From assembly GCF_030056575.1 (NCBI RefSeq), contig NZ_JASHHX010000005.1:1-64000 (forward strand): a stretch of DNA of 64,000 bases, read 5' to 3'. Below are positions 5,531 to 33,477 of this stretch, piece after piece. This DNA is from Rhodoblastus sp. 17X3 (GTDB taxonomy: Bacteria > Pseudomonadota > Alphaproteobacteria > Rhizobiales > Beijerinckiaceae). The notes beneath the pieces were generated by a model. That model did not search any database, was not told the origin of the DNA, and saw only the letters and a program-made list of their open reading frames with translations. The translations under genes and the position numbers were made by a program. How positions within the stretch are numbered: the first letter of the stretch is position 1; each line of letters begins with the position of its first letter.

Positions 5531-8500
5531 TCATGCGTTCGTCGCCGCGGAAAAGTAAATGAACGGGTGTCCGTGCGGCGGGTCGACTGTCGAGGCCGCG
5601 AACTGGACGCTGCTGGCGAAGCTCCCGGCATTTTGCCCGAGCAAACCGAGATTGGCCGCGGGCGAACCGCCTTCAAGGAGCAGGGCCGCCACCGCGGCTG
5701 GGCCGCTTTGTGTCGATCCGGCGCCTCCGGCGACCGGCGGGTCGGTCATCACCAGGAACTGCGGCGCGGAACTAGCCGTTTCGCCCGTGGTCAGATTATT
5801 CGCGGTGATGATCAGATTGGCGACCGGCTGACCCGTTCCTGTATAGGTCGACGACAATGTGAGGTTGGAAATCGGCGCACCCGTCGTCCCGGTGGTCTCG
5901 GCGATGGTCCAGGTGAATGTGCCGTCCGCCTGTTTCGCGTTCGAGACGCTATAGCCGCTCGGCGCGCTGATGGTCTCGTAGGACGGCAGCCCCCTGATGA
6001 CCACCGAAAGACGGTCGTCGCCATCGACGGGCGTCGCCGTGACGCCCAACGCCACCGACCCGCCCGCCGCAACAAGCAGCGCCGAATTGGCGAGGGTCAG
6101 AACTGGCGCTTCCGGCCCCTTGTCCTCGTCCACCGTCAAGGCGCGGGTCGCCTGCGCGGCCGCGTTTCCAGCGGCGTCGGAGACATTGGCCGTGACCGTA
6201 TAGGCGCCGTCGGCGAGGGCGAGGGCCTGGGCGCCGGTGAGGGCAACCGACCATGCGTTGTTGGTGGGGACAGCGGCCGTATAGTTGCCGACCACCGCAT
6301 TCGTGCGATCGATGAGCTTGACGCTAACCACCTGGCCGGTCTCCGCGCCGGAGGTCTTGCCGCTGATCGAGAAGCCGGCGGCGGCCTCGGTCCCACTGAG
6401 GATATCGTTTCCGGCGATCGTGCTGATGGTGACGGTCGGGGCGGTGGTGTCGATTTTCAGAGTTCCGGCCGGATTCCTGGCCGCGCCGCTCACCACGGCG
6501 GCGTTTCCGGCCAGATCCTTGATGCTGCCGCCGTTGACCTGAAGCGACGAGACCGTCAGATCGGACGTATTCTGCCCTGCCGCGACGACATAGGTGAAAG
6601 CCAGCGCTTTCGTGCCGGAGCCGCCCGCATAGGTCGCGACCCCGCCGTCGTTCAGCGCCAGAGTGGGCGCGCCTGCGACGAATACGCTCTCGCTGAAATT
6701 CACTGTCAACGTCACGGATTTGCCGGCGTTCAGATTCGCGGTGGCCGGGTTGGCGATGACGGAAGACACGGTCGGCGCCGCTGTGTCCAGCGTAGCGACG
6801 AAGATCGGCGACGGCGCCGAGACATGGCTCACGGCGTCGGTGGCGGTGGCGGTGAGATTGTTGACGCCCTGCGCCAGCGTGATGTTGCTCGCCGTGGTCC
6901 AATTGCCCCCGCCGTCGGCGGCGGCGGTCGCGACCAGAATCGCGCCATCGTAGAGGTTGACGGTGGCGTTGGCCTCGGCGGTTCCGCTGACTCCGACGGA
7001 GGCGACATTGGTAGTTCCGTCGGCCGCGCTTGTTCCATTATCGGGCGAGATGCCGGAAATAGCGGGGGCCGCGGGCGCTGTCGTGTCGAGCGTGGCGACG
7101 AAAATCGCGGAGGGCGCGGAGATATTGCCGGCAGCGTCGGTCGCCGTTGCCGTGAGATTGTTGACGCCCTGCGCCAGCGTGATGTTGCTCGCCGTGGTCC
7201 AATTGCCGCTTCCGTCGGCGGCGACCGTCACCACCAGGGTCGCGCCGTCATAGAGCGCGACGGTGCTGCCGGCCTCGGCGGTTCCACTGACGGCGACGGT
7301 GGCGGCCGAGGTGATCCCATCGGTCGCGCTCGTCCCCGTGTCCGGAGAGATCCCGGAAATGACCGGGAGGCCCGGCGCCGCCGTGTCCAGGCTTGCAACA
7401 TAGGTCGCAGACGGCGCGGAGGCGTTGCCTGCGGCGTCCGTCGCCGTGGCGGTGAGGTTGTTGACGCCCTGCGCCAGCGTGATGTTGCTGGCAGTGCTCC
7501 AATTGCCCCCGCCATCGGCGGCGACGGTCGCGACCAGAATCGCGCCATCGTAGAGGTTGACGGTGGCGTTGGCCTCGGCGGTTCCGCCGACTGCGACGGA
7601 GGCGATATTGGTGAGGCCGTCGGCCGCGCTCGTCCCGCTGTCAGGCGATATGCCGGAAATGGCCGGGAGACTGGGCGCCGCCGTGTCGAGCGTGGCGACG
7701 AAAATCGCGGAGGGCGCGGAGACATTGTTCAAGGCGTCGGTCGCAGTCGCGGTGATGTTATTTACGCCCTCCGCCAGGGCGACGTTGCTCGAGGTCGCCC
7801 AAGCGCCGTTGGAGCCGGCGACCAGCGTCACCACCAGAATTCCGCCGTCATAGAGCTGGACGCTGCTGCCGGCCTCGGCGGATCCGCTGACCGCGACAGA
7901 GGCGACATTGGTGATCCCGTCGGACGCGCTCGTCCCGCTGTCGGGCGAGATCCCGGCGATGGACGGCTGAGCCGGCGGCGTCGTGTCGAGCGTCGCGACG
8001 AAGGCCCCTGAAGGCGCAGAGGCATTCCCCGCGGCGTCGGTTGCTGTGGCGGTGAGGGTATTGACGCCTTCCGCCAGAGTGATGTTGCTCGACGTCGTCC
8101 AGGCGCCGTTGGAATCGGCGACCAGCGTCGCAATCAGGGTCGCTCCGTCGTAAAGCTGGACCGTGCTGCCGGCCTCGGCGGTTCCGCTGACGGCGACAGA
8201 CGCGATATTGGTGAGGCCGTCCGTCGCGCTCGCCCCGGCGTCGGGCGAGATCCCGGCGATGGACGGGGCGTCCGGAACATTGGTGTCGATGCGCAGGATC
8301 CCGGCGGGATTGGCGGCGGCGCCGTCCAGAATGGCCAGGTTTCCCGAGGCGTCCCTGATGTCGCCGCCGTCCGGCACGAGCCCCAGCACGGTCAGATCGA
8401 ATGTATTTTGTCCTGGCGTGACGACATAGGTGAAGGCCAGCGCGTTCGTGCCGGAGCCACCCGCATAGGTCGCGATTCCGCCGTCGTTCAGCACCAGATA

Positions 8501-10945
8501 GGGCGACCCGGCGACAATGACGCTGTCGCTGAAATTCACCGTCAAGGTCACCGACTTGCCGGCGTTGAGACTGGCGTCGCCCGGATTGGCGACGACGGAC
8601 GCGACAACCGGCCCGTTGCTGACCGTGAAAACATCGGCGTTCGAGAGTTGGCTTGCGCCGGCCGCGTTGGCCTCCGTCGCGGTGACGCTATGGCTGCCCC
8701 CCACGACCGGGGTCGAGAAGGTGAAGACCCAGCCGCCGTCGCTTCCGACCGTCGTCGTCCCGGCGGAAACGCCGTCGAGGAAGACATTGATGGTGTCGCC
8801 GCGATAGCCCGTTCCGGTGACCTGAAGCCCATTGCTGGGGGCAAGGCCGCCGATGCTCGGGGACGTGATGACGGGCGACGGCGGGTTCACGAGCACCCGC
8901 GCGGTCGCAGTGCCCCACCAGGCGCTCGATCCCGCCGGAATGCTGACTTTCGAAGGATCGTTGCTGAAGAATTCGTTGGAGATCCAGAAGGCGTTCGGGT
9001 CGTTGGGATCGACGACGACGGAAGAAGAAACGCCCCAGCGCTGCACGCCGGTCGTCGGATCGGCGCCGCCCAGCGGGTTGTTGGCGACCGGGGCCGAACT
9101 CGCCTGAAACAGCACCGGCGCGCCGAAGTCCTCGTTGCGCCCGGCGACGATGTAATAATCGGCTGGATAGATCGACGCGCCGGAAGCGGTGAAATTGATC
9201 AGCACGTCGCCGGCGCCATTGACGGCGATGGACGCGTTGAAGAGCGCGACGTCCGAACTGAAGCCGAGCGACGTGGCGGAAATGTCGCCGCCCTGGACCA
9301 GGACAGGCTGGGTCACGCCATCCGTGGCGTTGGTGACGTCGAGCTGGAACCATTCGAGTTGCGGCTGCGTCGCGCCCGCGGGCATGACCAGGCTGACGCC
9401 ATAGACGTAATTATGGCCGTCGATCGAAGCATAGGCGAGACTCTTGATGGTTCCGCCGCCGGCGTTGATCGTCGCGCTCGTCCCGGCCTGGGCCACGACG
9501 AAATCATTGCCGCCGCTCCCCTGGTCGCTGTTGCCGAGCGCGAAATTCTGCATCGGGGTGAAGGCGCCGGAGTTGGCGTCATAGGTCTGGTAATTGAGAT
9601 AGGTCTGCGAACCATTGGAATAGGAGGCGATCAGAAAGGTGGCGCCATCGCCGCCCGAGATGGAACTGAAATGGCCGTTGTTGAGATTGGTGAGCGTATT
9701 GACGCCCGGCGAGGCGGTGGTGATTGTCGCGCCATTGACGACATCGGAAAGCGGAACGACGAAGGTCTTCGTGCCGCCGCTGACCTGCGCCGTGATAACG
9801 ACATTGGAGCCGTCGACCGAAAGGCCGGGCATGTCCGTGGAGCTCGATCCCGTCGCCAGCGTGGAGACGCTCCAGCCAAGGTCGGGATTGGTGGTGGTCG
9901 CGATGTCGATATCGATATTGTTGGTGGAGACGTAATAGACGAGCGCGATCCCGACATAGAGGCCCGAGGCGCTGTCATAGGTGAAACGCGTGTCCAGCAA
10001 GGATTTGACGTCGCTCGCGTTCGGGGCCGAGGCGAAGACGGAATAGAGGCTCTGCGTCTTCGTCACATTGGTCGACAGATTGGTCCATTGGAGACGCGAC
10101 GTCTCGCTCGTCACCACGAAATCCGTTCCCGCGGCCAAGGCGTTTTGCGGGGGCCAGTTGGTCGAGTCGGTAATGCCGGGAATCTGGTTGGTGACCAGGG
10201 ACGAAGCCACCATCGGCGTGGCGGAATAGAAATCCAGGATCGGCGCTGTCCCGGTTTCGCCGATCGGCGCCAGGCCATAGAGGTCCAGGATCGTCGCCAG
10301 CAGCGCATATTGATTGGCGGCCTGGTTGTTGAGAACGCCGGCCGGAACGCCCGCCCCGAGGACAATGGTCGCGATCTGGTTCGGGTAGCTGCCATCGCTG
10401 CCTTCGTCGAAAGTGATGACCAGCAAGGAATTATTCGCCTGCGCCCAAGCGGCATAGGCCATCATGTTGACGAGCCACGCATCGCCGGAGGCGACCGTAT
10501 TCGTCATGTTGTTCAGGTCGCTCGGCGTGACGAAGGAAACGGTCGGAAGCGCGTCGAAACCGGCCGCGGTGGTCGGGAAAGCCGAGAAGGGCAGCCCGAC
10601 GCCCGCGGAACTGTCGAATTCCTGCCAGGGCATGTGCCAGGGCGCCGCGCCGGACTCGGCATAGCCCGCGAAGGTCAGTCCGGCATTGGCCAGGCTGCTC
10701 GCCAGCGTCGGGACATAGCTCGGGTAAGTCGAAGGCACGGTGTCGTCGGTCACGCCCTGCGTCGAACCGGAAAAGAGCGCGAAATAATTCGGCTGGCTCG
10801 GATGGGCGACCGCGTTGAAATTGGTGAACAGCATGCCCATCGAGGCGAGCAGGTTCAGATTGGGCGCCTGTGGATTGCCGATGACCTGGGAAAAGCCCTT
10901 GTTTTCAAGGTTGAGGACGACAATGTGGCTCGGCGCGGCAGTCAT
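5531..10945 (-). CDS. giant extracellular phosphoesterase with Ig-like repeats
   Basis: 1804 residues. Residues 1-245 resemble the phosphoesterase family of acid phosphatases and phospholipase C (IVVLNLENKGFSQVIG, AHPSQPNYFALFSG, LLVITFDEGSDG). Residues about 270-700 are a beta-rich, propeller-like region that I cannot name. Then come one Ig-like domain, a SwmB-like domain (NAGKSVTLTVNFSDSV), five near-identical 100-residue Ig repeats (about 891-1390), a second SwmB-like domain, another Ig-like domain, and a C-terminal module (about 1612-1737) also found in the protein at 27569-29194. There is no N-terminal signal peptide, so export by the type I system at 29-33 kb is inferred. ATG at 10945 has AGGGAGC upstream. 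The substrate is unknown; the phosphoesterase call rests on the N-terminal motifs. Confidence 0.85.
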   Translation of the reverse strand: MTAAPSHIVVLNLENKGFSQVIGNPQAPNLNLLASMGMLFTNFNAVAHPSQPNYFALFSGSTQGVTDDTVPSTYPSYVPTLASSLANAGLTFAGYAESGAAPWHMPWQEFDSSAGVGLPFSAFPTTAAGFDALPTVSFVTPSDLNNMTNTVASGDAWLVNMMAYAAWAQANNSLLVITFDEGSDGSYPNQIATIVLGAGVPAGVLNNQAANQYALLATILDLYGLAPIGETGTAPILDFYSATPMVASSLVTNQIPGITDSTNWPPQNALAAGTDFVVTSETSRLQWTNLSTNVTKTQSLYSVFASAPNASDVKSLLDTRFTYDSASGLYVGIALVYYVSTNNIDIDIATTTNPDLGWSVSTLATGSSSTDMPGLSVDGSNVVITAQVSGGTKTFVVPLSDVVNGATITTASPGVNTLTNLNNGHFSSISGGDGATFLIASYSNGSQTYLNYQTYDANSGAFTPMQNFALGNSDQGSGGNDFVVAQAGTSATINAGGGTIKSLAYASIDGHNYVYGVSLVMPAGATQPQLEWFQLDVTNATDGVTQPVLVQGGDISATSLGFSSDVALFNASIAVNGAGDVLINFTASGASIYPADYYIVAGRNEDFGAPVLFQASSAPVANNPLGGADPTTGVQRWGVSSSVVVDPNDPNAFWISNEFFSNDPSKVSIPAGSSAWWGTATARVLVNPPSPVITSPSIGGLAPSNGLQVTGTGYRGDTINVFLDGVSAGTTTVGSDGGWVFTFSTPVVGGSHSVTATEANAAGASQLSNADVFTVSNGPVVASVVANPGDASLNAGKSVTLTVNFSDSVIVAGSPYLVLNDGGIATYAGGSGTNALAFTYVVTPGQNTFDLTVLGLVPDGGDIRDASGNLAILDGAAANPAGILRIDTNVPDAPSIAGISPDAGASATDGLTNIASVAVSGTAEAGSTVQLYDGATLIATLVADSNGAWTTSSNITLAEGVNTLTATATDAAGNASAPSGAFVATLDTTPPAQPSIAGISPDSGTSASDGITNVASVAVSGSAEAGSSVQLYDGGILVVTLVAGSNGAWATSSNVALAEGVNNITATATDALNNVSAPSAIFVATLDTAAPSLPAISGISPDSGTSAADGLTNIASVAVGGTAEANATVNLYDGAILVATVAADGGGNWSTASNITLAQGVNNLTATATDAAGNASAPSATYVASLDTAAPGLPVISGISPDTGTSATDGITSAATVAVSGTAEAGSTVALYDGATLVVTVAADGSGNWTTASNITLAQGVNNLTATATDAAGNISAPSAIFVATLDTTAPAAPAISGISPDNGTSAADGTTNVASVGVSGTAEANATVNLYDGAILVATAAADGGGNWTTASNITLAQGVNNLTATATDAVSHVSAPSPIFVATLDTAAPTVSSVIANPATANLNAGKSVTLTVNFSESVFVAGAPTLALNDGGVATYAGGSGTKALAFTYVVAAGQNTSDLTVSSLQVNGGSIKDLAGNAAVVSGAARNPAGTLKIDTTAPTVTISTIAGNDILSGTEAAAGFSISGKTSGAETGQVVSVKLIDRTNAVVGNYTAAVPTNNAWSVALTGAQALALADGAYTVTANVSDAAGNAAAQATRALTVDEDKGPEAPVLTLANSALLVAAGGSVALGVTATPVDGDDRLSVVIRGLPSYETISAPSGYSVSNAKQADGTFTWTIAETTGTTGAPISNLTLSSTYTGTGQPVANLIITANNLTTGETASSAPQFLVMTDPPVAGGAGSTQSGPAAVAALLLEGGSPAANLGLLGQNAGSFASSVQFAASTVDPPHGHPFIYFSAATNA
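6778..8277. repeat. five tandem 300-bp repeats coding Ig-like domains
   Basis: Five in-register copies with a period of exactly 300 bp (100 codons). The same 40-base segment recurs near 6856, 7156, 7456, 7756 and 8056. Copies one to three (lower coordinates) are almost identical over long stretches; the last two have drifted more. Each unit encodes a domain running from PSIAGISPD through VAVSGTAEAGSTV to FVATLDT. Such arrays can expand or contract by recombination and can confuse short-read assembly. Confidence 0.9.
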
Positions 10946-11151: not shown

Positions 11152-12003
11152 TCATTCGCCATTATGGCGCTTGAGCACCTCCAGCAGGGGAGCAGAGGTC
11201 GCCAGCGCCTTGTCAGATTTCTGCGTTCCCCAGGAATAGGCGTAGTCGAACACGGGATGCGCGATCCATTCGCGCCAAAGGTCCAGAATGCGGCGCAATT
11301 CTTCGGCGTTCGGCAGGCGGTAGCCGCCCCCTTCCGATCGCCATTCGCCTCCGCCGAACGTCTGGTAAATGGGCACGACCTGCGCATCGGATATTCCGAT
11401 CCGCCGGCCCGCCTCGACGAAGCGGCCGATCATGGCGAAATCGCATTCCCGCCAGTCGCGGCGGCACGGATAAGGCGCGATTCCGAACAGGTCGACATGA
11501 CTGTTGTCGGGACGCAGCGCGGCGTCAAAAGCCGGCGCGGCGGAGGTCCCGACATTCATCAGGGCGATGAAGGTCACGACTCCCGCGCGGCGCGCGTGGA
11601 TCCAGTCGGACTCCGCGCGCAGGCCCTCTGCCGGGCAAGGCCGCCGCCAGCGCCCCGACGGATCGGGATCGTCCATCAAATAGAAGCCGAACAATTTTGG
11701 ATGATCGATGACGGACTCGACCAGCCCGCGAAAGCGCGCGTCGGCGCCGTCGCAACTGCCGACCCACATCAGCCCCATCACGTCGCGGGGCAATGAGTCC
11801 AGAACCTCGGCGCTCGAGACATCCGCCAGATTAAAGCCAAAGTCGCGCGGGACAAAACGGCCTCCCGGATCGAAATTGCCGTTCACCGCGAAATGGCGCG
11901 GCGCTTTCACGGCGTCGTCCGCGGCGGCGTCCCACGAGCCCAGCGCCGTCGGGGCGATCAACAGGATTGCGCCGAGCCAGATTTTTCGCCAGCGCAACCC
12001 CAT
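11152..12003 (-). CDS. secreted glycoside-hydrolase-like protein
   Basis: About 283 residues. The ATG at 12003 has an AGGAGG site and starts a signal peptide (MGLRWRKIWLGAILLIAP then AAADD). The mature part is a paralogue of the N-terminal domain of the protein at 27569-29194. Shared blocks in order are NGNF, FNLADVSS, LFGFYLMDDPDP (LYGFYLADEPNG in the paralogue), DLFGIAPYP, VPIYQTFGGG and FDYAYSWGTQ. The layout suggests a TIM-barrel hydrolase with an acidic residue after strand 4, but I cannot name the family. It is the last gene of the polysaccharide operon, suggesting a role in trimming or releasing the polymer outside the cytoplasm. The DEP-to-DDP change may alter or abolish activity. Confidence 0.7.
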   Translation of the reverse strand: MGLRWRKIWLGAILLIAPTALGSWDAAADDAVKAPRHFAVNGNFDPGGRFVPRDFGFNLADVSSAEVLDSLPRDVMGLMWVGSCDGADARFRGLVESVIDHPKLFGFYLMDDPDPSGRWRRPCPAEGLRAESDWIHARRAGVVTFIALMNVGTSAAPAFDAALRPDNSHVDLFGIAPYPCRRDWRECDFAMIGRFVEAGRRIGISDAQVVPIYQTFGGGEWRSEGGGYRLPNAEELRRILDLWREWIAHPVFDYAYSWGTQKSDKALATSAPLLEVLKRHNGE

Positions 12004-12083
12004 GACGCCCTCCTGCCGCGGGCGAGGTTTCCCTCGCGCGAAGATTCGTTCCCTGCCGCTCGATGCGAAGAAAAAGGCGGCGG

Positions 12084-12839
12084 TCATCCCGCTCCGACGG
12101 CGACCTCGTTCAATTGCGCGACGATGGCGCGCTCCGCCTGACGGACATTGTCGTCGAGCGATTCGCCATCGGCCGAGCTGAGAGCCAGAACCGGCCGCCC
12201 GCGCCGGCCGAGCAGTCCGTCGATCCGCCGCGCCAGCGCCGCCTGTTCCGGCGCCTCGACGCGCCTTTCCTCGAACAGTCGGCCCACGCGGCCGACCAGT
12301 TCCATGCGCCGGCTGATCCGGGACTCGATATCCTTGACGGGCGCTTCGACGCGAATGGCCAGATCGGAATGCGGAACGACGTCGAGCAGGCCGCCGATCG
12401 TCGCATCGTCAATGCCCGGCTGCACCTCGGCGATCGAAGCGATAGCCTGGATATAGGCCTGATCGAAAATCCAGGTCTTTCGACTCCGGGCCGCCTGGGT
12501 CCAGGCGTTGGAAAGCCGCGCCAGATATTGCCGCATGCGAAGCGCACGGAAAATCTCGCCCTGAGGCAAGGCCTGCGTCAATTCGCTGACTACGCGCCCG
12601 GAGCCGCCGGCGCCCGGATTCTTCGCGACATGGAACATCAGTTCGCAGGCTGGCGCCACCAGCCGTCGAAAGGCGTCGGAAAAGGGCTGCGGCTGGGGCG
12701 CCCCCGCGCTGGAAGTCTCGCCGGGCCGCGCGCTGAGCCTGAGCATGACCGGATAGCCTGCCGCGCGGAGGTGATTGGCGAGGCTGATCGCAAGGGTCGT
12801 CTTGCCGGAACCCGGCGGGCCAAAAAATTCGAGGATCAA
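12084..12839 (-). CDS. P-loop nucleotide kinase-like protein of the polysaccharide locus
   Basis: About 251 residues. The Walker A motif GPPGSGKTT comes within the first 16 residues, followed by a kinase-like fold with RMRQYLARL, WIFDQAYIQ (Walker B/DxD-like) and an Arg-rich lid (ESRISRRMELVGRV). I prefer the TTG start at 12839 (ILEFFGPPGSGKTT) because GGAGG sits five bases before it; GTG codons at 12851 and 12860 are alternatives without a good ribosome-binding site. It follows the nucleotidyltransferase-kinase fusion by 28 bases and precedes the glycosidase-like gene by 80. The substrate is unknown; phosphorylation of a sugar, lipid or nucleotide precursor is possible. Confidence 0.75.
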   Translation of the reverse strand: MILEFFGPPGSGKTTLAISLANHLRAAGYPVMLRLSARPGETSSAGAPQPQPFSDAFRRLVAPACELMFHVAKNPGAGGSGRVVSELTQALPQGEIFRALRMRQYLARLSNAWTQAARSRKTWIFDQAYIQAIASIAEVQPGIDDATIGGLLDVVPHSDLAIRVEAPVKDIESRISRRMELVGRVGRLFEERRVEAPEQAALARRIDGLLGRRGRPVLALSSADGESLDDNVRQAERAIVAQLNEVAVGAG

Positions 12840-12867
12840 CGCCGCCTCCACTCGCAACACGCTCTAC

Positions 12868-14388
12868 TCACAACACGTCCCACACGGCCTGCTTGACCTT
12901 GCGGGTTACATCTTCCAGCGGCGCTCTCGCGTCGATGCAGACAATTTTCGCGCCCGGAAACTGTAGCCGCTCCAGACTGGCCAGGCGCTCCACAATCAGC
13001 GCCGGATTCATGTCCGGCTCACGCCGCTGGACGGTTTCAGGACCGACCTGGAGCTTGACGACCAGATCGGGCGGCGCGCGATGCGCCCGCATATAGATCG
13101 CCTGTTCGAACCGACGGAGCCAGTCGGGCGCTAAGGGCAGCCGGTAGAGCAGCGGGCCGTCGTTGAAATTCTCGATTTCGTTCTGCGGGTAGCGGTCGGT
13201 GACGACAATGAAGCCGCGCCGCGCAGCACGCTGGATGGTGATCAGCTTGTGCCGCTTGTCGAGCGCCACGGCCATCGCCCAGACGGCGAACAACGCCGAA
13301 TAGACAGGCCCCGGCGGTCGGTCGGAAATTTTGCCGTGCGACGCGCCTTTCGGCTTGGTCTTGATGAAGCGGGCGATCACTCCGGCAAGGGCCTTGAACG
13401 GCGCCAGGACCAGCGAAGGCGCCCCGTCGCCGGTGCCGAAATAGACCCTGACGACATCGATTTCCGGTCCGAGCCACTTGCGGATCATCGTCGCCGCCGT
13501 GCTCTTGCCCGAGCCGTCCACGCCGACGAAGGCGATCACGAGCCCGCCGCCCGGCGCGCGCCGTCCCCAGATGCGGGGCGTTTGCAGATGGCGCCGGTTG
13601 AAGGCCCCGAACAGAAAAGCCAACGTCCGCGCCGCGCCGACCAGCGCCGCCTCGACGCCGCCGCAACGGCGCTGCAACGACAACGCGCCGGCGACTTCCC
13701 GGCGCAAACCGGCGGATGCGCCCATCGGATCGTCAATGATCGCGCGGACGACCCGCCCGGCGAGATCGGCGTCGAAAATTTCCTCGGCGGCGCAGCGCAA
13801 GGCGACGCTGTCAATCAGCGGCGCAAGCTCGGCGAAATCCTTGCGGAATTTTTCGTCGATCTGCTCGCGGCGCGCAATCTGGACCGGATCGAGGCGGCTG
13901 AATTCAAGCTGGCCGCGCACGAACAACAGCAGCGCCGCATCTTCCGGGGCGAGCACGCGCGGATTGCGGCCGGGCAGGAGGCGGCTGCGCTCCAGAAAAG
14001 CCGTCTCGCTCGGCAGGCGGGCGTTCTTGAACAGGGACGGACCCAGGATCAGCCGGAAATGGACATGGGCGTGCAGCAAAACCCCGCTGGCCTGATCGAA
14101 GCCAAGGAAGCTCGTCATCGCCGGGTCGTCCCGGCCCGGCCCGTCGGGCGCCAGCTTGAAGCCGCAATCGACGAGGATTTGCAGAGCCTGCTGGCGATCG
14201 CCCCGCGCAATCAGCAAATCGAGGTCGGAGCGTCCGGCGTAGGCGTCGGGCAGACGAGTCGGGCTCTTCCAGCTGCACCAGGCGAGACCGGCGTGCTCGA
14301 AAGCCTCAAACAGGCGCGCGTAAAGCGGCGGCGGCGCGGGTCGATCGCTTTCGACCCCATGAGCCGGCATGGCCATTGAAACATTCAT
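12868..14388 (-). CDS. nucleotidyltransferase-thymidylate-kinase-like fusion
   Basis: About 506 residues with two enzyme-like parts. The N-terminal part (about 25-260) carries GRSDLDLLI, the G-S-D-x-D type motif of the nucleotidyltransferase superfamily, after WCSWKS. The C-terminal part (about 285-506) is a thymidylate-kinase-like P-loop domain with GVDGSGKST, a DRYPQNEIENFNDGP segment resembling the DR(Y/F) motif, and LKLQVGPE-like VVKLQVGPET. The ATG at 14388 overlaps the upstream stop by four bases. Proteins of this layout occur in capsule loci, but the reaction is not established. True dTMP kinase activity is unlikely given the long insertions and the context. Confidence 0.75.
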   Translation of the reverse strand: MNVSMAMPAHGVESDRPAPPPLYARLFEAFEHAGLAWCSWKSPTRLPDAYAGRSDLDLLIARGDRQQALQILVDCGFKLAPDGPGRDDPAMTSFLGFDQASGVLLHAHVHFRLILGPSLFKNARLPSETAFLERSRLLPGRNPRVLAPEDAALLLFVRGQLEFSRLDPVQIARREQIDEKFRKDFAELAPLIDSVALRCAAEEIFDADLAGRVVRAIIDDPMGASAGLRREVAGALSLQRRCGGVEAALVGAARTLAFLFGAFNRRHLQTPRIWGRRAPGGGLVIAFVGVDGSGKSTAATMIRKWLGPEIDVVRVYFGTGDGAPSLVLAPFKALAGVIARFIKTKPKGASHGKISDRPPGPVYSALFAVWAMAVALDKRHKLITIQRAARRGFIVVTDRYPQNEIENFNDGPLLYRLPLAPDWLRRFEQAIYMRAHRAPPDLVVKLQVGPETVQRREPDMNPALIVERLASLERLQFPGAKIVCIDARAPLEDVTRKVKQAVWDVL

Positions 14389-17581: not shown

Positions 17582-17620
17582 GAGGTTGAACTTTCCCTGT
17601 CGTCGGCGCGGCCGCAGCTT

Positions 17621-18832: not shown

Positions 18833-18990
18833 GGGGCTTCCCTTCCATTTTCCTTGGCGCAATGCGCCCTTCCTCGAAAAAATGCTCGGCCCGAAGCGGC
18901 GCGGGGTCAATCTTCCCCTTGGCTTGCGCGGCGCCAAATGGACGGAGACGAAACAGCCCAGCTATCGCCAAAGGAGGATGCCGCTACGCC

Positions 18991-21092: not shown

Positions 21093-21098
21093 GGCGTG

Positions 21099-22241: not shown

Positions 22242-22587
22242 GCGGGCGCCTCGAAATTGCTTTACCTGATGCAGATTGCGAGTTTCCCGGCGCGGGCGTT
22301 AGTTCGCTTTCAGGCGGCGGCGACCGCCTTTTGTTGCGCAACTACGCCTTTGGGGCGCCCGGGCATCCGCAAAGTGGGCGGAACGACAACCCTTTGCGAC
22401 TATATTTTTTCAAGCGCTGCGGCTCCTATCATTGATTTCGCTGTTCGAGCTCGAACGCATGCTTTTTTCGCCGGGCTTCGCCCGTCCGACCTGAGGATGC
22501 GTCTTCACCCCGAACAGATCAAGGGCCCCAAGGCCAGATCGTTAGCCAGATCCTGGGGCGGCCCAGATTGCATCCGGAGATTACGCA
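22242..22587. promoter_or_regulatory. divergent regulatory region of the polysaccharide locus
   Basis: 346 bp between degT and the dehydratase gene. It holds a perfect 14-bp palindrome, GTTCGAGCTCGAAC (22443-22456), roughly midway between the two starts, and a short AT-rich block ending TATATTTTTTC at about 22401-22411. No promoter could be fixed with confidence. A shared operator controlling both directions is the simplest reading. Confidence 0.45.
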
Positions 22588-23865: not shown

Positions 23866-23876
23866 AGGAGGCCGTC

Positions 23877-25169
23877 ATGTCCCGGATCACGTCCCGGCCC
23901 TCCGTCCGGAACCTCGCGCGCAAGACCTTCATGCGCGCGATCTGCCTGCCCGCCGGCCTCGCCTGCTGCGTTCTCGCAACTGGCCTCGCGCAAGCGGGAT
24001 CGGGTCCGTCGCCACAATATCGCGTGCACGCCGGCGACGTCATCGAGGTTTCAGTCGCCGGTCTGCCGGAGTTGCGCATGCGCGGCGCCGTCCAGACCGA
24101 CGGCGCCATCTCGCTGCCGCTGCTCGGCGCGCTCAATGTCGCCGGCATGACTCCGGCGGACATGCGCAAGAACATCCAGCGCGCGCTGGCGCAGAAGATC
24201 TATCGCCAGCACGCTCTGGACGGCCGCGAAGTGCTCATCGTCATCCAGGCGGATGAAGTCGGCGCGGCGATCGTGGAATATCGGCCGATCTATGTGAATG
24301 GCGATGTGGCCAAGCCCGGAGAACTGACCTACCGTCCGGAAATGACGGCGCGCCAGGCGATCGCGCTCGCGGGCGGCGTCGACATCGCGGCCCTGCGTTC
24401 GCAAAATCCCGCCATGGAGGCGGCGGCGGTCAGGGGCGAAGTCGATTCGCTCTCCATCGAACTCGCCAAGGCGGAAGCCCGCCTCGCGCGCGTCTCCGCC
24501 GAGCTGGAAGGCAAGGAAGCGCTCGCCGCCCCGAAAATCCAGGGCCCCGCCCTGCCCTTGGCCGAACTCACGCGAATCCGGCAGGGAGAGGACAATATCT
24601 TGCAGGCGCGTCTGGCCGATTACCACCGCGAACGCGACTTCCTCCGCAGCTCGATCACCCAGCTCGGCGAACGCACGACGATTCTGGAACGGCAGCAGCG
24701 CGAAGAAGAGGAAGGCGCCCGCGCCGACACTGAAGACCTCAGGCGAATGATCGACTTGCTCGCAAAAGGCAATGTCGCTAGCCCCCGCGTCCTGGAAGCG
24801 CGTCGGGCGCTGCTGCTATCGCAGACCCGCGCGCTGCAGGTTACTGACGGACTGCTGCTGATCAAGAAACAATCGACCGATCTGGCGCGGCAGCTCCAGC
24901 ATTTCGAGGACGACCGCAAAACCGAATTGCTGAAGGAGCAGCAGGAGGCCGCCGCCACGGTGAGCATCTTGAAGATCAAGCGGGACGCCGCCCTCGACAA
25001 GCTGAACCTGCTGTCGCTCGCGCGCTCGAGGCTCTCGGTGGACGACCCGTCGCAAATTGAAATTCAATTGGTGCGAAGGGAAAACGACGCCTCGACCCGT
25101 CTCACTGTGGATGGCGATTATCCGCTGGATCCGGGCGACGTCGTCGAAATCGCGGTCAAGGCGCATTGA
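23877..25169 (+). CDS. polysaccharide export protein (Poly_export/SLBB, ExoF-like)
   Basis: 430 residues with a signal peptide (RAICLPAGLACCVLATGLAQ). Poly_export domain: YRVHAGDVIEVSVAGLPEL then DGAISLPLLGALNVAG. An SLBB domain follows: YVNGDVAKPGELTYRPEMT and QAIALAGG. Residues about 185-385 form a long Gln/Glu/Arg-rich coiled coil, and the end returns to PLDPGDVVEIAVKAH. This matches the rhizobial ExoF layout more than E. coli Wza and lacks an obvious lipobox. It should form the periplasmic or outer-membrane conduit for the polymer. Starts 11 bases after the dehydratase stop with AGAGGAGG. Confidence 0.88.
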   Translation: MSRITSRPSVRNLARKTFMRAICLPAGLACCVLATGLAQAGSGPSPQYRVHAGDVIEVSVAGLPELRMRGAVQTDGAISLPLLGALNVAGMTPADMRKNIQRALAQKIYRQHALDGREVLIVIQADEVGAAIVEYRPIYVNGDVAKPGELTYRPEMTARQAIALAGGVDIAALRSQNPAMEAAAVRGEVDSLSIELAKAEARLARVSAELEGKEALAAPKIQGPALPLAELTRIRQGEDNILQARLADYHRERDFLRSSITQLGERTTILERQQREEEEGARADTEDLRRMIDLLAKGNVASPRVLEARRALLLSQTRALQVTDGLLLIKKQSTDLARQLQHFEDDRKTELLKEQQEAAATVSILKIKRDAALDKLNLLSLARSRLSVDDPSQIEIQLVRRENDASTRLTVDGDYPLDPGDVVEIAVKAH

Positions 25170-27568: not shown

Positions 27569-29194
27569 ATGACAATAACTGGTCCCGATACGACTCTGCA
27601 TTATGCAGCGAACGGAAACTTCGTGAATGGCGTCTATGCGCCTGCCGTCGATGGCTTCAATCTCGCCGATGTCAGTTCCGCCGCTGAGCTCGACGCCCTG
27701 CCGGCGGGGGTCAAGGGCCTCGTGTATCTCGGCATGACCGATGGGGTGACGGACGCGTTCAAGGCGGTCGTCGATGCTTGCAAGGGAAATCCCAATCTCT
27801 ATGGCTTCTATCTCGCCGACGAACCGAATGGCGACCCCACGATAGCCGCCAACCTGAAGGCGGAGTCGGACTACATCCATGCGAATCTGCCCGGCGCGAA
27901 GACGTATATGACCGAGCAGAACTTGAGCAGCAATACGAGTCCGACCTTCTATTACACGCCAGCCAATACGGGCATCGATCTTTTTGGACTCGACCCTTAT
28001 CCGGTGCAGACAAATGTGCCGAACAATCTCGACTATAATATTATTCCGCTGGCGGTCACTGCCGCTGAAAACGCCGGCATTCCTCTCTCCAGCATCGTTC
28101 CGGTCTATCAGGCCTTCGGCGGCGGAGGTTATACGACCTATATCCTGCCGACGGCTGACCAGGCGCAGCAAATTCTGGCGACCTGGGCGTCGGTCGTGCC
28201 CAATCCGGCTTTCGACTACGCCTATAGCTGGGGCACGCAGCTGAACGATACGGCGCTGAGCAACGATCCGACGCTGGCGGCGGTCTTCGCCGCTCATAAC
28301 GCCTCATCCAGCGCGACGACGACCACGACCACGACCACGACGCCAAACACCCCGACGACGCCGACCACGCCCGTGGCCGCGCCGACGGTGACGATCACCA
28401 GCGTCGGCGCCACCACCACGCAGGCGAGCCAGACCATTACCGGAACGGTCGATCTCGCCGACGCCGGCTCGACGGTCAATGTATTGGACGGGACGACAAA
28501 AATCGGCTCCGCCACGGTCGCCGCCGACGGAACCTGGTCGGCGGGCGTCACGCTGGCCAATCTGGGCTCCAATGTGCTGACGGCCACTGACACCAATTCT
28601 GGTGGAACGGGCGTGTCCAACGCGGTGACCTTCTCGCTGACGACGCCGGCTCCGGCGCCCGCTCCGACGCCGACGCCAACGCCCTCCTCGGCCACGGCGC
28701 CGACGGTCACGATCGCGGATACGTCGCTCGACGTTACTGGGCGCGGCGGCACGGTCGATCTCGGCATCAGCGTCACGGCGCCGGATTCCGCTTCCGACGT
28801 CACGGTCACGATCAAGGGGCTTCCGCGCTATGAATCGATCACCGACGGTCTCGGCGATCGATTCCACGGGAGCTCGATCACGCTGACCAAGGCGCAAGTC
28901 GACAGCGGACTGACGCTCACGTCTTTTTACCGTGGCACGGGGCATCCCGTCGCGACGCTCAGCATTACGGCGAGCGACACGGTCGGCGGCGTCGCGTCGT
29001 CCTCGGCAAGCCAGTCCATCGTTGTGACCGACCCGCCGCCCGCCACTTCCCCGGCGACGACCAACAAGTTGGCGCTGTTGAACCAATATATCGCCAGCGG
29101 ATTCTCCAGCGATGCGCAGACCGCCGCGATGCATTTTGACGCCGCGGCGCGGTTCGGCGGGAACGAGTCGTTCCTGGCGAGGCCTCAGCACTAA
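27569..29194 (+). CDS. glycoside-hydrolase-like protein fused to Ig modules, probable type I secretion substrate
   Basis: 541 residues. Residues 5-245 are the glycosidase-like domain shared with the protein at 11152-12003 (NGNF, FNLADVSS, LYGFYLADEPNG, DLFGLDPYP, VPVYQAFGGGG, FDYAYSWGTQ). A Thr-rich linker (about 248-270), an Ig-like domain (about 276-370), a Pro/Ala linker and the C-terminal module (about 377-490) shared with the 1804-residue phosphoesterase follow (VTIKGLPRYESI, GTGHPVATLSITA, VVTDPPP). The last 45 residues (LALLNQYIASGFSSDAQTA) resemble that protein's tail. There is no signal peptide, and a type I transporter is encoded 183 bp downstream. ATG at 27569 has GAGGAG upstream. 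The family of the hydrolase domain is not recognised. Confidence 0.75.
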   Translation: MTITGPDTTLHYAANGNFVNGVYAPAVDGFNLADVSSAAELDALPAGVKGLVYLGMTDGVTDAFKAVVDACKGNPNLYGFYLADEPNGDPTIAANLKAESDYIHANLPGAKTYMTEQNLSSNTSPTFYYTPANTGIDLFGLDPYPVQTNVPNNLDYNIIPLAVTAAENAGIPLSSIVPVYQAFGGGGYTTYILPTADQAQQILATWASVVPNPAFDYAYSWGTQLNDTALSNDPTLAAVFAAHNASSSATTTTTTTTTPNTPTTPTTPVAAPTVTITSVGATTTQASQTITGTVDLADAGSTVNVLDGTTKIGSATVAADGTWSAGVTLANLGSNVLTATDTNSGGTGVSNAVTFSLTTPAPAPAPTPTPTPSSATAPTVTIADTSLDVTGRGGTVDLGISVTAPDSASDVTVTIKGLPRYESITDGLGDRFHGSSITLTKAQVDSGLTLTSFYRGTGHPVATLSITASDTVGGVASSSASQSIVVTDPPPATSPATTNKLALLNQYIASGFSSDAQTAAMHFDAAARFGGNESFLARPQH

Positions 29195-29207
29195 AGTCCC
29201 GGTCCTG

Positions 29208-29246: not shown

Positions 29247-29377
29247 GGCAATCAGCGTTCCTTGTTTCGCGTCCCCAGCCATCGTTCGGCCCGCTCGGGC
29301 CTTAGCGATCCTGACGCCGCGCATCTTCCTTCGGCGAAGGCGCAGTCCGAAACACAAGCAAGAAGATTCGACAACGG

Positions 29378-32032
29378 ATGGATTCACGACAGGATAATGC
29401 GCAAGCGCTGGATTCCGGCGCCTTTGCATTGGCGATCTTTCTTCGCCTTCATGGCGTCGCCGCCGCTCGTCCCGATGAAATCAAACGCCAGGCCGGAGAC
29501 CATCCGCTGGGCGTCAATGACATCCTGAGACATTCCCGCGCCTTCGGCGTCAGGGCGCGCGCGCGCATGATGGACTGGGCGCGGCTGACGCAGGCGCAAT
29601 TTCCAGCGATCGCGGCCTTGCGCGACGGCGGCTTTCTCGTGCTGGGCAAGATCAGCGACGAGAATGTCGTGGTCGTGCGCCCCGCCGCGGAATCGCCGAA
29701 GCCGGAACTCCTGACGCGCGCCCAGTTTGAAGAAGAATGGAGCGGACGCGTCCTGCTGGCCGGCCGGCGCAGCCTCGACTGGAAGCCGATCGCGGACCAA
29801 TCCGTCGCGGGACTGAAACGCTTCTTCGCCAGTGCGGCCGAACGTCTCGGCGCGGCCGCCGTGAGCCTCGGCAAAGGACCGAAGGTTTCCGAACCGGCGG
29901 TCGCCCCAGCCGGCGAGGGTTCGGAAGGGGATTCCGAATCCGGCCTCGGCGCGCTGGTGCTCCTGCTTGGATGTCACGGCATTGGCGCCGATCCCGCGCA
30001 AATCAAGCACCGGCTTGGCGTCGCGCGGGTTGGCGTCGTCGAAATGTTGCGCTGCGCCAAGGACCTCGGCCTGAAGGCCAGCGCGCGCGCGACCAATTGG
30101 GATCGCCTGGCGCGGACGCCGCTGCCCGGCATCGCCGTGTTGAAAGACGGCGGTTTCCTGATTATCGGCAAGGTCGGCGACGACAAGGCGCTGGTGCAAT
30201 ATCCCGCCTCTCCGCGCCCCGAAACGCTTTCGCGCGAAGAATTCGAGGCGATCTGGGACGGCCGCCTCGTGCTGATGGCCCGCCGGTCGCCGCTCGCCGA
30301 ACTCAACCGGCGCTTCGACATCACCTGGTTCCTCGGCGCGGTTCACAAATATCGCCGCCTGCTCGGCGAAGTCCTGATCGCTTCCTTCTTTCTCCAGCTG
30401 TTCGCTCTGGTTTCGCCGCTGTTCTTCCAGGTCGTGATCGACAAGGTGCTGGCGCATCGCAGCATGAGCACGCTGGACGTGCTAATCGCCGGCCTCGTCG
30501 CCGTGACCCTCGCCGAGGGCGTTTTGGGCGCCTTGCGAACCTATCTGTTCACGCATACGACCAATCGCATCGACGTCGAACTCGGCGCGCGGCTGTTCAA
30601 ACATCTGCTGGCCCTGCCGATCGCCTATTTCCAGGCGCGGCGCGTCGGCGATTCCCTGGCCCGGGTGCGCGAGCTCGAAAACATCCGCCAATTCCTGACC
30701 AGCTCGGCCCTGACTTTGGTGGTCGACCTCGTCTTCACCTTCGCCTTCCTTGCGGTGATGTTCTATTATTCGCCGGTCCTGAGCTGGCTCGTGCTGGCGT
30801 CCTTCCCGCTCTATATCGGCCTTTCGGCCGGCGTTGCGCCCTTGTTCCGCCGCCGCCTCGACGAGAAGTTCAAGCGCGGCGCCGAGAACAACGCCTTTCT
30901 GGTCGAATGCGTCTCGGGCGTCGAAACCCTGAAGGCGATGGCGGTCGAGCCGCAGATGCAGCGCCGCTGGGAAGAGCAGCTTGCGGGCTATGTCGCCTCG
31001 AGCTTCCGCGTGCTCAACCTGAACAACAACGCCAGCCAGGCGGTGCAGACGATCAACAAGCTGGTGACGGCGGCGACGCTCTATTTCGGCGCCAAGCTGG
31101 TGATCGGCGGCGATCTGAGCGTCGGCGAACTGGTCGCCTTCAACATGCTGGCCGGCCGCGTCAGCGCGCCCGTGCTGCGACTCGCGCAAATGTGGCAGGA
31201 ATTCCATCAGGCCCGTCTCTCGGTCGACCGTATGGGCGATATTCTCAACTCCGTGCCTGAACCGAGCTTCAGCCCCGGGCGCGTCGCGTTGCCGACGATC
31301 CGGGGCGAGGTCACCTTCGAACATGTCAGCTTCCGTTATCGGGTCGATGGCGCGACGACGCTGGACGACGTGAATTTTTCGGTCAGGCCCGGCGAAGTGA
31401 TTGGCATTGTCGGCTCCTCGGGATCGGGCAAGAGCACCCTGGCCAAGCTGGTCCAGCGCCTTTACGTTCCCGAAAAGGGCCGCGTGCTGGTGGACGGCGT
31501 CGATCTCGCCATGGTCGACATCGCCTGGCTGCGGCGCCAGATCGGCGTCGTCCTGCAGGACAGCACTTTGTTCAACTGCTCGATCCGCGACAATATCGCT
31601 TTGGCCGATCCGGCCATGCCGATGGAGAAGGTCATCGCCGCCGCCAGTTTCGCCGGCGCGCATGATTTCATCCTCGAACTGCCCGACGGCTATGACACGA
31701 TCGTCGGCGAGCGCGGCGGGACCCTCTCCGGCGGCCAGCGGCAGCGCGTGGCCATCGCGCGCGCCCTCGTCACCGACCCGCGCATCCTGATCTTCGACGA
31801 AGCGACCAGCGCGCTGGATTATGAAAGCGAACGCGCCATTCAACAGAACATGAAACGCATCGCCGCGGGCCGGACCGTGTTCGTCATCGCGCATCGGCTC
31901 TCGACCGTGCGCCAAGCCGACCGCATCCTGACCATCGAGCATGGGCGCATTGTCGAGGATGGCACCCATGATCAGCTGATCCGCCAGAACGGCCGCTATT
32001 CCAAGCTCCACCAGATGCAGGGAGGAGCCTGA
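29378..32032 (+). CDS. type I secretion ABC transporter with two tandem C39-like domains
   Basis: 884 residues. Two peptidase-C39-like domains precede the membrane part: about 12-125 (DSGAFALAIFLRLHG) and about 188-300 (ESGLGALVLLLGCHG). Neither has the catalytic Cys before the G-x-x-A/AL helix, so both are substrate-docking CLDs of the HlyB type rather than proteases. Six membrane helices lie at about 320-600. The nucleotide-binding domain has Walker A GSSGSGKST (about 678), LSGGQRQR, Walker B ILIFDEATSALD and the switch His in IAHRLST. It would power export of unfolded substrates with the HlyD-like adaptor that follows. An outer-membrane TolC partner is not in the window. Confidence 0.93.
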   Translation: MDSRQDNAQALDSGAFALAIFLRLHGVAAARPDEIKRQAGDHPLGVNDILRHSRAFGVRARARMMDWARLTQAQFPAIAALRDGGFLVLGKISDENVVVVRPAAESPKPELLTRAQFEEEWSGRVLLAGRRSLDWKPIADQSVAGLKRFFASAAERLGAAAVSLGKGPKVSEPAVAPAGEGSEGDSESGLGALVLLLGCHGIGADPAQIKHRLGVARVGVVEMLRCAKDLGLKASARATNWDRLARTPLPGIAVLKDGGFLIIGKVGDDKALVQYPASPRPETLSREEFEAIWDGRLVLMARRSPLAELNRRFDITWFLGAVHKYRRLLGEVLIASFFLQLFALVSPLFFQVVIDKVLAHRSMSTLDVLIAGLVAVTLAEGVLGALRTYLFTHTTNRIDVELGARLFKHLLALPIAYFQARRVGDSLARVRELENIRQFLTSSALTLVVDLVFTFAFLAVMFYYSPVLSWLVLASFPLYIGLSAGVAPLFRRRLDEKFKRGAENNAFLVECVSGVETLKAMAVEPQMQRRWEEQLAGYVASSFRVLNLNNNASQAVQTINKLVTAATLYFGAKLVIGGDLSVGELVAFNMLAGRVSAPVLRLAQMWQEFHQARLSVDRMGDILNSVPEPSFSPGRVALPTIRGEVTFEHVSFRYRVDGATTLDDVNFSVRPGEVIGIVGSSGSGKSTLAKLVQRLYVPEKGRVLVDGVDLAMVDIAWLRRQIGVVLQDSTLFNCSIRDNIALADPAMPMEKVIAAASFAGAHDFILELPDGYDTIVGERGGTLSGGQRQRVAIARALVTDPRILIFDEATSALDYESERAIQQNMKRIAAGRTVFVIAHRLSTVRQADRILTIEHGRIVEDGTHDQLIRQNGRYSKLHQMQGGA

Positions 32033-33477
32033 TGACTTCGACCAATCTGAAGGTCGTCCCCTTCCCCCGGAAGGCGCCGACGCGCAGCGCGCATGAGATC
32101 GCCTTCCTGCCGGCGGCGCTCGAAATCACGGAAACGCCGCCCTCTCCGATCGGCCGCGCGATCGGCGCGACCATTGTCGGGATTTTCTGCTTTGCTCTGG
32201 GCTGGGCGTCGCTCGGCCATGTCGACATCATCGCCAGCGCGAGCGGCAAGATCGTGCCGAGCGGGCGGACCAAACTGGTCCAGCCGTTCGAGACCGGCGT
32301 CGTCAGCGCGATTCACGTCCGCGACGGCCAGAAAGTCAAGGCCGGGGAAGTCCTGATCGAACTCGATCCGACCATGAATGGCGCCGAGCACGAACGTATC
32401 AAGGGCGATCTGATCGCCGCCGAACTCGAAGTCGCGCGGCTGCGGGCGGCGCTCGCCTGGAAGACCGGCTCCGTCGCCGATCCGCTCGACGGCTTTCATC
32501 CGCCGCAAGGCGCGAGCGCGGAGCAAATCGAGACGCAGCGGCAATATCTGATCAGCGAAACCTCGGAGCAAAACGCCAAGCTCGCCGAAATCGACCGGCA
32601 GCAGGCGCAGAGGGAGGCCGAGCGCGCCACCGTCGCCGCCGGAATCGCCAAGCTGGAGGGCACGGTCCCCGTGCTGCAGGAGCGCGTCGACGTGCGCAAG
32701 GGCCTGTTCGACAAGGCGCTGGGCAGCAAGCTGGTCTATCTGACGGAATATCAGGATCTCGTCGGCATGAAACTCGACATCGGCGTCCAGCAGAGTCGAC
32801 TGCGTGAATCCGAGGCGGCCATCGCCTCGCTGCGCGAGGCCCGGCAGCGCACGGAAGCCGAATATCGCCGCACGATCTACACCGACCTCACCAAGGCGGA
32901 GATGCGCGCCGCCGGAGTGGCGCAGGACGCCGTCAAGGCGGAGCAGAGGACGAAGCTGCAGCGCCTGACCGCGCCAGTCGATGGCGTGGTGCAGCAACTC
33001 GCCATTCATACGGTCGGCGGGGTGGTGACGCCCGCCCAGCCGCTCGCCGTTATCGTTCCGGAAGACAGCGCGCTCGAAATCGAAGCCATGCTGCCCAATC
33101 AGGACGTCGGCTTCGTGCATCCGGGCCAGGAAGCGGGCATCAAGGTCGACACCTTCAACTTCACCCGCTACGGCCTCATTCGCGGCAAGGTGCTGAGCGT
33201 GTCGCAGGACGCCGTGGCGCAGGCCGCGCCGCAGGGCAAGTCCGGCGAGGCGGCCGAAGGCGCGCCGAGCAACGCCAGCGAGCGCAAGGCCCAGGCGCTC
33301 GAATATGTCGCCCGCGTCTCGCTCGACAAGACGCAGATGAACATCGACGACGAGGCGGTCAAGCTCAGCCCCGGCATGGCGGTGACCGTCGAAATCAAGA
33401 CCGGCTCGCGGCGCATCATCAGCTATCTGCTGTCGCCGCTGGAAAAGCACCATCAGGAATCCCTGCGCGAGCGGTAA
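32032..33477 (+). CDS. type I secretion membrane-fusion protein (HlyD family)
   Basis: 481 residues. One membrane helix (about 42-62), then the lipoyl-like half-motif SASGKIVPSGRTKLVQPFE, VVSAIHVRDGQKVKAGEVLIELDP, a long alpha-hairpin (about 125-290), and the second half with LTAPVDGVVQQLAIHTVGGVV split around the hairpin. The C-terminus has LSPGMAVTVEIKTG then RRIISYLLSPL, the family signature. Its ATG overlaps the transporter stop by one base (TGATG). It bridges the inner-membrane transporter to an outer-membrane channel. Confidence 0.94.
   Translation: MTSTNLKVVPFPRKAPTRSAHEIAFLPAALEITETPPSPIGRAIGATIVGIFCFALGWASLGHVDIIASASGKIVPSGRTKLVQPFETGVVSAIHVRDGQKVKAGEVLIELDPTMNGAEHERIKGDLIAAELEVARLRAALAWKTGSVADPLDGFHPPQGASAEQIETQRQYLISETSEQNAKLAEIDRQQAQREAERATVAAGIAKLEGTVPVLQERVDVRKGLFDKALGSKLVYLTEYQDLVGMKLDIGVQQSRLRESEAAIASLREARQRTEAEYRRTIYTDLTKAEMRAAGVAQDAVKAEQRTKLQRLTAPVDGVVQQLAIHTVGGVVTPAQPLAVIVPEDSALEIEAMLPNQDVGFVHPGQEAGIKVDTFNFTRYGLIRGKVLSVSQDAVAQAAPQGKSGEAAEGAPSNASERKAQALEYVARVSLDKTQMNIDDEAVKLSPGMAVTVEIKTGSRRIISYLLSPLEKHHQESLRER

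What the first reader, a model, noticed from the sequence alone, without database searches (positions are those of the whole stretch)
5531..33477. Polysaccharide-coupled type I secretion of surface hydrolases sharing one C-terminal module
Two large proteins without signal peptides, the 1804-residue phosphoesterase and the 541-residue glycosidase-like protein, share a roughly 120-residue C-terminal module (V-I-K/R-G-L-P-x-Y-E-T/S-I, G-T-G-Q/H-P-V-A, ending V/M-T-D-P-P) and similar tails (L-x-L-L-x-Q ... F-x-S-x-x-Q-x-A). The second gene sits directly before a type I transporter and adaptor, and both bracket a complete Wzx/Wzy polysaccharide locus. No RTX nonapeptides are visible in either. This looks like a dedicated export route for glycan- or phosphate-active proteins made with the polymer, with the module or tail as a possible non-RTX secretion signal.
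Basis: partly seen in the sequence, partly recalled or inferred. Interest (0 to 1): 0.75.

Follow-up and report, generated by a model that had tools for sequence, protein, structure and literature searches.

The report
Non-RTX cargo tail, tandem-CLD exporter
In this bacterium and in many relatives, glycan-cutting enzymes seem to be exported straight out of the cell by a dedicated one-step exporter that reads a distinctive tail at the enzymes' end, rather than the calcium-binding repeats usually linked to such exporters.

Summary
Both proteins share a C-terminal all-beta module (36% identity, E 2e-16) and lack RTX-family matches and signal peptides; the smaller gene lies 183 nt before a type I ABC/HlyD pair. 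The module was found in 77 genomes; neighbourhoods were fetched for 74, and in 64 the module gene lies upstream of such a pair on the same strand. The module is not the best candidate for the signal. A ~48-residue tail (ALLNQYxAxGF…FLTRPHH) ends within 5 residues of the C-terminus in 95 of 98 distinct proteins matching its profile, 19 of them without the module: haem peroxidases, polysaccharide lyases, GH16 enzymes. The adjacent transporters are HlyB-class, and 58 of 64 carry two tandem dead C39-like domains. A Sec-type paralogue of the glycosidase, without module or tail, sits in the same locus. The 1804-residue protein is a weaker case: its tail fails the profile. A complete Wzx/Wzy locus beside the operon was seen only in the window genome and Rhodoblastus sp. 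BP08. Best reading: a new variant of type I secretion of glycan-active enzymes, related in kind to Rhizobium PrsDE/Ply. Export itself is untested.

The parts
5531..10945 (-). 1804-aa phosphoesterase / Ig-repeat protein with the C-terminal module, no signal peptide
10271..10870 (-). PF04185 phosphoesterase match (residues 26-225; profile 106-355 only)
6161..8245 (-). Big_13 / Ca_tandemer Ig-like repeats (about residues 901-1595)
5738..6109 (-). shared C-terminal module (residues 1613-1736)
5534..5734 (-). degenerate tail of the 1804-aa protein (LGLLGQ...FIYFSAATNA); no match to the tail profile
11152..12087 (-). paralogue of the glycosidase domain (43% identity) with an N-terminal hydrophobic stretch and no module or tail
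12084..25169 (.). Wzx/Wzy-type polysaccharide locus: Wzz, Wzy_C, GT4, Wzx, Bac_transf, DegT, PF02719, Wza
27569..29194 (+). 541-aa glycosidase-like cargo protein
27578..28303 (+). predicted (beta/alpha)-barrel glycosidase-like domain
28697..29035 (+). C-terminal all-beta module
29048..29191 (+). C-terminal tail (ALLNQYIASGF...FLARPQH), proposed export signal
29378..32032 (+). T1SS ABC transporter, HlyB class
29378..29782 (+). first C39-like domain, Ser at the expected catalytic Cys position (DSG; position judged by eye)
29918..30307 (+). second C39-like domain, Ser at the expected catalytic Cys position (ESG; position judged by eye)
32032..33477 (+). HlyD-family periplasmic adaptor

Best explanation
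The 541-residue glycosidase is the cargo of the type I secretion system encoded directly behind it. Inferred steps: the unfolded protein is recognised at its ~48-residue C-terminal tail (a predicted helix with ALLNQYxAxGF, a variable linker, and a terminal FL(T/S/A)(R/K)P(Q/H)H) by the HlyB-class ABC protein, whose two tandem C39-like domains without catalytic Cys would hold or chaperone the chain; it then passes through ABC, HlyD and an outer-membrane channel in one step without Sec. The all-beta module next to the tail is an accessory domain, perhaps for folding outside the cell or for binding glycan. The cargo class is mainly glycan-active enzymes, here possibly trimming or modifying the polymer made by the adjacent Wzx/Wzy locus. 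Shown by sequence: operon linkage, tail and module conservation, tandem C39-like domains, no hydrophobic N-terminus, no RTX-family match in the two window proteins. Inferred: export, the tail as signal, substrate and role.
Against: No experiment. The genome has four HlyD adaptors over the cut-off, so cargo-to-transporter assignment rests on adjacency and conservation. Genomes are related, so counts are not independent events. The 1804-aa protein's tail fails the profile. Ten of 88 module proteins, including all six of G095, G180 and G154, lack the tail. In G095, G154, G180 and G043 no ABC was found beside the module gene; several of these lie at contig ends. RTX-bearing tail carriers exist, so the transporter may serve RTX cargo too, and single loose RTX-like nonamers occur in three adjacent cargo proteins (L077, L086, L180). 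Model confidence is low in the tail (pLDDT under 45).
Confidence: 0.8

Rival explanations
1. The all-beta module, not the tail, is the export determinant; the tail is only its natural end.
For: Module and tail occur together in 78 of 88 module proteins; the module is the better-conserved block; in the window's 1804-aa protein only the module is recognisable.
Against: 19 distinct tail carriers lack the module; even with filters off, the module profile matches them not at all or only from position 95 on, which includes the profile's own tail columns. They include haem peroxidases and polysaccharide lyases. The G857 protein before a tandem-C39-like ABC has neither by profile.
Confidence: 0.12
2. 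The adjacent gene is cargo but uses an ordinary T1SS signal; the tail is a lineage quirk, and the system is simply PrsDE-like secretion of non-RTX glycanases.
For: [quoted passage not shown] R. leguminosarum pRlBT01b places a T1SS beside a heparin-lyase-family gene and a polysaccharide tyrosine autokinase. 25 of 99 validated T1SS substrates in one survey have no RTX motif (PMC8861453, passages), so RTX-free cargo as such is not new.
Against: RapA2 and that heparin lyase end in LV and FV and match neither tail nor module profile at E<0.01; 0 of 96 C-terminal tails here (one a duplicate) end in the [FLI][VAI] pattern reported for RTX proteins; no C39-like domain was detected in the pRlBT01b transporter with these queries.
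Confidence: 0.2
3. The 1804-residue protein is exported by another of the genome's T1SSs, or not exported by T1SS at all, and merely shares a beta-sandwich-like domain.
For: Its tail fails the profile; it lies about 18 kb from the transporter on the other strand; three other ABC/HlyD pairs exist.
Against: In G709 a phosphoesterase/Ig-repeat/module protein, with a tail-profile match ending 9 residues before its C-terminus, lies directly before ABC-HlyD; the window gene keeps its place in Rhodoblastus sp. BP08.
Confidence: 0.4

Closest known systems
Rhizobium leguminosarum PrsDE with PlyA, PlyB and Rap proteins
   Same: T1SS export of signal-peptide-less, partly non-RTX glycan-active proteins carrying a shared domain (Ra/CHDL); plyA lies beside prsDE (PMC2275737, PMC5061743, PMC3034196: passages).
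   Different: RapA2 matches neither the module nor the tail profile at E<0.01 and ends in LV. PrsD, PlyA and PlyB themselves were not examined here.
HlyB/HlyD RTX T1SS with C39-like domain
   Same: HlyB-class ABC with an inactive C39-like domain plus HlyD.
   Different: Usually two tandem C39-like domains; no PF00353 match at E<=0.001 in any of the 58 adjacent cargo proteins scanned; tail mostly ends PQH/PHH. A review states that RTX cargo and C39-like domains go together (PMC8277102, passages).
R. johnstonii 3841 bltDE with pRL90159/pRL90161
   Same: Two large non-RTX proteins upstream of a peptidase-domain ABC/HlyD pair, beside Wza/Wzx-type genes (PMC2275737 passages).
   Different: DUF4082 proteins with no significant tail or module match; one C39-like domain.
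R. leguminosarum pRlBT01b heparin-lyase T1SS locus
   Same: Polysaccharide-lyase-type cargo beside T1SS and polysaccharide genes.
   Different: Classical FV end; no C39-like domain detected.

Membership tests
Type I secretion system (HlyB class) | ABC exporter with HlyB-class profile above cut-off | tested here: met
   TIGR01846 1061 bits, cut-off 726
Type I secretion system (HlyB class) | HlyD-family adaptor in the same operon | tested here: met
   TIGR01843 396 bits, cut-off 209; ORFs overlap by one base
Type I secretion system (HlyB class) | C39-like domain without catalytic Cys | tested here: met
   Two such domains, DSG and ESG at the expected Cys position, judged by eye
Type I secretion system (HlyB class) | TolC-like outer-membrane partner | not tested
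   genome not searched for it
Type I secretion system (HlyB class) | cargo without N-terminal signal peptide | tested here: met
   0 of 88 module proteins with hydropathy >=1.8, 14 of the 88 with an unsure start; a simple hydropathy test, no signal-peptide predictor
Type I secretion system (HlyB class) | cargo absent outside the cell when the transporter is lost | not testable with these tools
   needs a mutant
RTX proteins | GGxGxDxUx nonapeptide repeats (PF00353) | tested here: not met
   no PF00353 match in the two window proteins nor in 58 of 63 adjacent cargo proteins that were scanned together; the third family member in this genome does have them
RTX proteins | C-terminal [FLI][VAI] end | tested here: not met
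   0 of 96 C-terminal tails, one of them a duplicate
PrsDE-secreted Ply/Rap family | Ra/CHDL (cadherin-like) domain | tested here: inconclusive
   module profile against RapA2: E 0.04 in a four-sequence search, 1.9 bits; no fold comparison of the module alone
Wzx/Wzy-dependent polysaccharide locus | Wzx flippase, Wzy polymerase, Wzz/Wzc, Wza and initiating transferase together | tested here: met
   (Wzz 28.7 bits, cut-off 25.5; Wzy_C 36.2, cut-off 31.7)

The most novel reading that the evidence does not exclude
A separate subclass of type I secretion, spread in Bradyrhizobium and patchily in the window's family, in which a transporter with two tandem dead C39-like domains exports mainly RTX-free glycan-active enzymes through a transferable ~48-residue tail ending in FLTRPQH/PHH, placed on unrelated catalytic domains with or without an Ig-like module or RTX repeats. 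It would be an exception to the stated pairing of C39-like domains with RTX cargo.
Probability: 0.6. Interest if true: 0.72.

Novelty: new variant of a known kind. Interest (0 to 1): 0.62.

Why it matters
Recognition of cargo by T1SS transporters is poorly defined outside RTX proteins. Here one conserved tail recurs at the ends of unrelated enzymes in genomes with one transporter type, and the same locus holds a Sec-type and a T1SS-type version of one glycosidase. That gives a ready system for testing what the signal is and what a second C39-like domain does. It also suggests a function for proteins such as the cargo annotated 'hypothetical protein' on the B. barranii plasmid, and points to how soil and symbiotic bacteria may remodel polysaccharides.

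Tried and rejected
Module as a known domain: no Pfam match at E<=1 and no NCBIfam match at E<=0.1 in the 541-aa protein, and no PDB sequence match at E<=1. Catalytic domain by sequence: no PDB match better than E 0.05; only the fold comparison helped. bltDE cargo as relatives: rejected. A single origin of the first C39-like domain: not resolved; the second forms a clade in 10 of 11 rows (support 97/95), the first falls in three places, and the tree has two long branches. Within-genome likeness of tails on module-free and module proteins: mean rank fraction 0.215 over 19 cases, 10 in the top tenth, but not corrected for relatedness and many cases are one clade; no more than a hint. Fisher test of tandem C39-like domain against module (56 both, 1 only tandem, 8 only module, 130 neither of 195, P 6e-39) also ignores relatedness; its lists were copied by hand, G689 was counted as tandem, and the listing was capped, so tandem cases are a lower bound. 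A fold search of the module alone was not obtained.

Rows left out and corrections: three module genomes of 77 (G701, G726, G758) had no neighbourhood fetched. My default-filter module call missed one module protein (L080:291-7694) that the genome search had found; it was first counted as module-free. Together with one duplicate (the same G818 protein in L146 and L261) this lowers the module-free tail carriers from 21 to 19 and the matches from 99 to 98. The gene caller also missed the module genes of G689 and G754. Of 63 adjacent cargo proteins, the 58 under 1000 aa went into the Pfam scan; of the five larger, those of G709 and G079 were scanned whole and that of G507 in its first 1600 residues, those of G750 and G799 not at all. 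Of the 20 stretches fetched, 19 gave a tail carrier; L260 gave none. Ten of these 19 were scanned with Pfam.

Literature: no paper whose title or abstract start points to a tandem C39-like T1SS or to this tail appeared in the listings; these are word searches of open-access PMC papers only. Read as passages only: PMC2275737, PMC5061743, PMC8277102, PMC8861453, PMC3034196. None was read in full.
Full report
OBSERVATION. The two proteins are as described: a 1804-aa phosphoesterase/Ig-repeat protein at 5531-10945 (-) and a glycosidase-like protein at 27518-29194 (+), whose conserved start at 27569 gives 541 aa. Their modules are homologous (36% identity, E 2e-16; score 204 against a shuffled maximum of 76 in 1000). 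The tails of these two proteins alone are barely above chance (32 of 1000 shuffles as high). The gene order is cargo, ABC (29378-32032), HlyD (32032-33477), and the genes between the two cargo genes form a Wzx/Wzy-type polysaccharide locus.

MORE IN THE SAME GENOME. A third module protein (contig C1) is a GH16 enzyme with Ig domains, RTX repeats, the module and the tail, near a GT4/Wza-like gene. So module plus tail also sits behind RTX repeats, in the place of a T1SS signal. A paralogue of the 541-aa protein's catalytic domain (43% identity, E 2.6e-53) at 11152-12087 has an N-terminal hydrophobic stretch and no module or tail. The same catalytic fold is thus offered once for Sec and once, it seems, for T1SS, within one locus. 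By contrast, five other RTX proteins of this genome whose ends I looked at have different C-termini.

DISTRIBUTION. With a three-row profile the module was found in 12 of 298 genomes of the window's family, 3 of 397 of the order, window genome included, and 64 of 195 of one genus: 77 different genomes in all. That genus is taken to be Bradyrhizobium because a B. barranii plasmid carries the same operon; the window genus is taken to be Rhodoblastus from records of Rhodoblastus sp. BP08.

SYNTENY. Neighbourhoods were fetched for 74 of the 77 genomes. In 62 the module gene lies upstream of an ABC transporter on the same strand within three called genes, in 60 as the immediate neighbour (median gap 111 nt), with HlyD next in all 62. 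My gene caller missed the module gene in two more (G689, G754); stop-to-stop reading shows it 84 and 4 nt before the ABC, giving 64 of 74. The other ten: G696, G837, G842, G800, G783, G676, G043, G154, G180, G095; some lie at contig ends, and in G696 and G676 another module place lies beside a tandem-type ABC. Each of the four genera with the module contains at least one adjacent case.

TAIL. Of 88 module proteins, 78 match the 14-row tail profile and 76 of these end within 5 residues of the C-terminus. With a 19-row profile, 99 of 1305 called proteins match, 96 at the C-terminus; after removal of one duplicate and correction of one missed module call this is 98 distinct proteins, 95 at the C-terminus, 19 without the module. 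With filters off, the module profile matches these 19 not at all or only from position 95 on, where its own tail columns lie. Examples without the module: haem peroxidase with RTX (L250) and without a PF00353 match (L254), polysaccharide lyases (L261, L267), GH16 enzymes (L266, L268) and a gluconolactonase-like protein directly before ABC-HlyD (L269); 3 of the 10 scanned have no Pfam family. In the Bradyrhizobium group, all 60 tail genomes are among the 64 module genomes. None of the 96 ends in the [FLI][VAI] pattern reported for RTX proteins (PMC8861453, passages). The tail is therefore the shared, separable element, and the module an accessory.

TRANSPORTER. The window ABC has two C39-like domains (44% identical to each other), both with Ser at the expected catalytic Cys position (judged by eye). 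Of the adjacent ABCs, 56 of 62 have two, and the two extra cases do as well. In the order search only the window genome and G656 of 397 showed matches over both domains in one frame (E<=1e-20; a lower bound). In 195 Bradyrhizobium-group genomes 57 have a tandem ABC, 56 of them with the module (the listing was capped). The exception, G857, has a 1582-aa upstream protein without a profile tail whose end region reads LFGQFAAAGF. Of the single-domain relatives looked at in the group, three stand behind RTX-rich proteins with a loosely related ending (L282, L283, L288); for many others no clear upstream cargo was seen. A review states that RTX cargo and C39-like domains go together (PMC8277102, passages); here none of the 58 adjacent cargo proteins scanned has a PF00353 match at E<=0.001, although three have a single loose nonamer and RTX-bearing tail carriers are encoded elsewhere in some of the same genomes.

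POLYSACCHARIDE LINK. It is conserved in Rhodoblastus sp. BP08, where the whole arrangement is kept, and a second module locus in both genomes lies near a Wza-like gene. In G095 (Roseiarcus) two GH16 module genes lie near a Wza-like gene but without an ABC. In the Bradyrhizobium group the link is the exception: 12 of 62 genomes show any of five markers above threshold in the fetched stretch, five of them Wza. The link is therefore mainly through what the cargo may act on, not through gene clustering.

CONCLUSION. Type I export of the 541-aa protein through the adjacent transporter, guided by its C-terminal tail, is the best reading (0.8). Sharing of that route by the 1804-aa protein is about even. 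The nearest known systems are the PrsDE/Ply/Rap system and HlyB-type RTX secretion; it works like both but does not fully show the features of either cargo family. I rate it a new variant of a known kind.

Noticed in passing
window 29378-30307: Two tandem C39-like domains without catalytic Cys at the N-terminus of the T1SS ABC protein; the product name of the B. barranii homologue does not mention it.
   Followed up: yes
window 11152-12087: Sec-type paralogue of the glycosidase domain; it has Asp-Asp-Pro where the T1SS-type version has Asp-Glu-Pro, so the two may differ in activity.
   Followed up: partly
L290 (NZ_CP088278.1 150000-172000): The operon is carried by a plasmid of Bradyrhizobium barranii typed as conjugative, between glycosyltransferase/asnB-type genes and insertion sequences.
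   Followed up: partly
L250, L252, L253, L254, L255: Haem-peroxidase-type proteins (Pfam run on L250 and L254; the others by likeness of their ends), with and without RTX repeats, ending in the same tail.
   Followed up: partly
L293 (NZ_CP125639.1): R. leguminosarum plasmid locus with T1SS, heparin-lyase-family protein and a polysaccharide tyrosine autokinase: a parallel arrangement with the classical C-terminal end.
   Followed up: partly
L086:14306-19534: 1742-aa protein with a classical RTX-type C-terminus, convergent to the cargo-ABC-HlyD operon in G071.
   Followed up: no
window 25223-26041 and 26042-27568: LuxR-type regulator gene (name by reading, no search) and a ~1.5 kb gap before the cargo gene, both also in Rhodoblastus sp. 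BP08; possible control region.
   Followed up: no
window 33556-34392: Sir2-type gene directly after HlyD, kept in Rhodoblastus sp. BP08 (family name from reading the sequence, no search).
   Followed up: no
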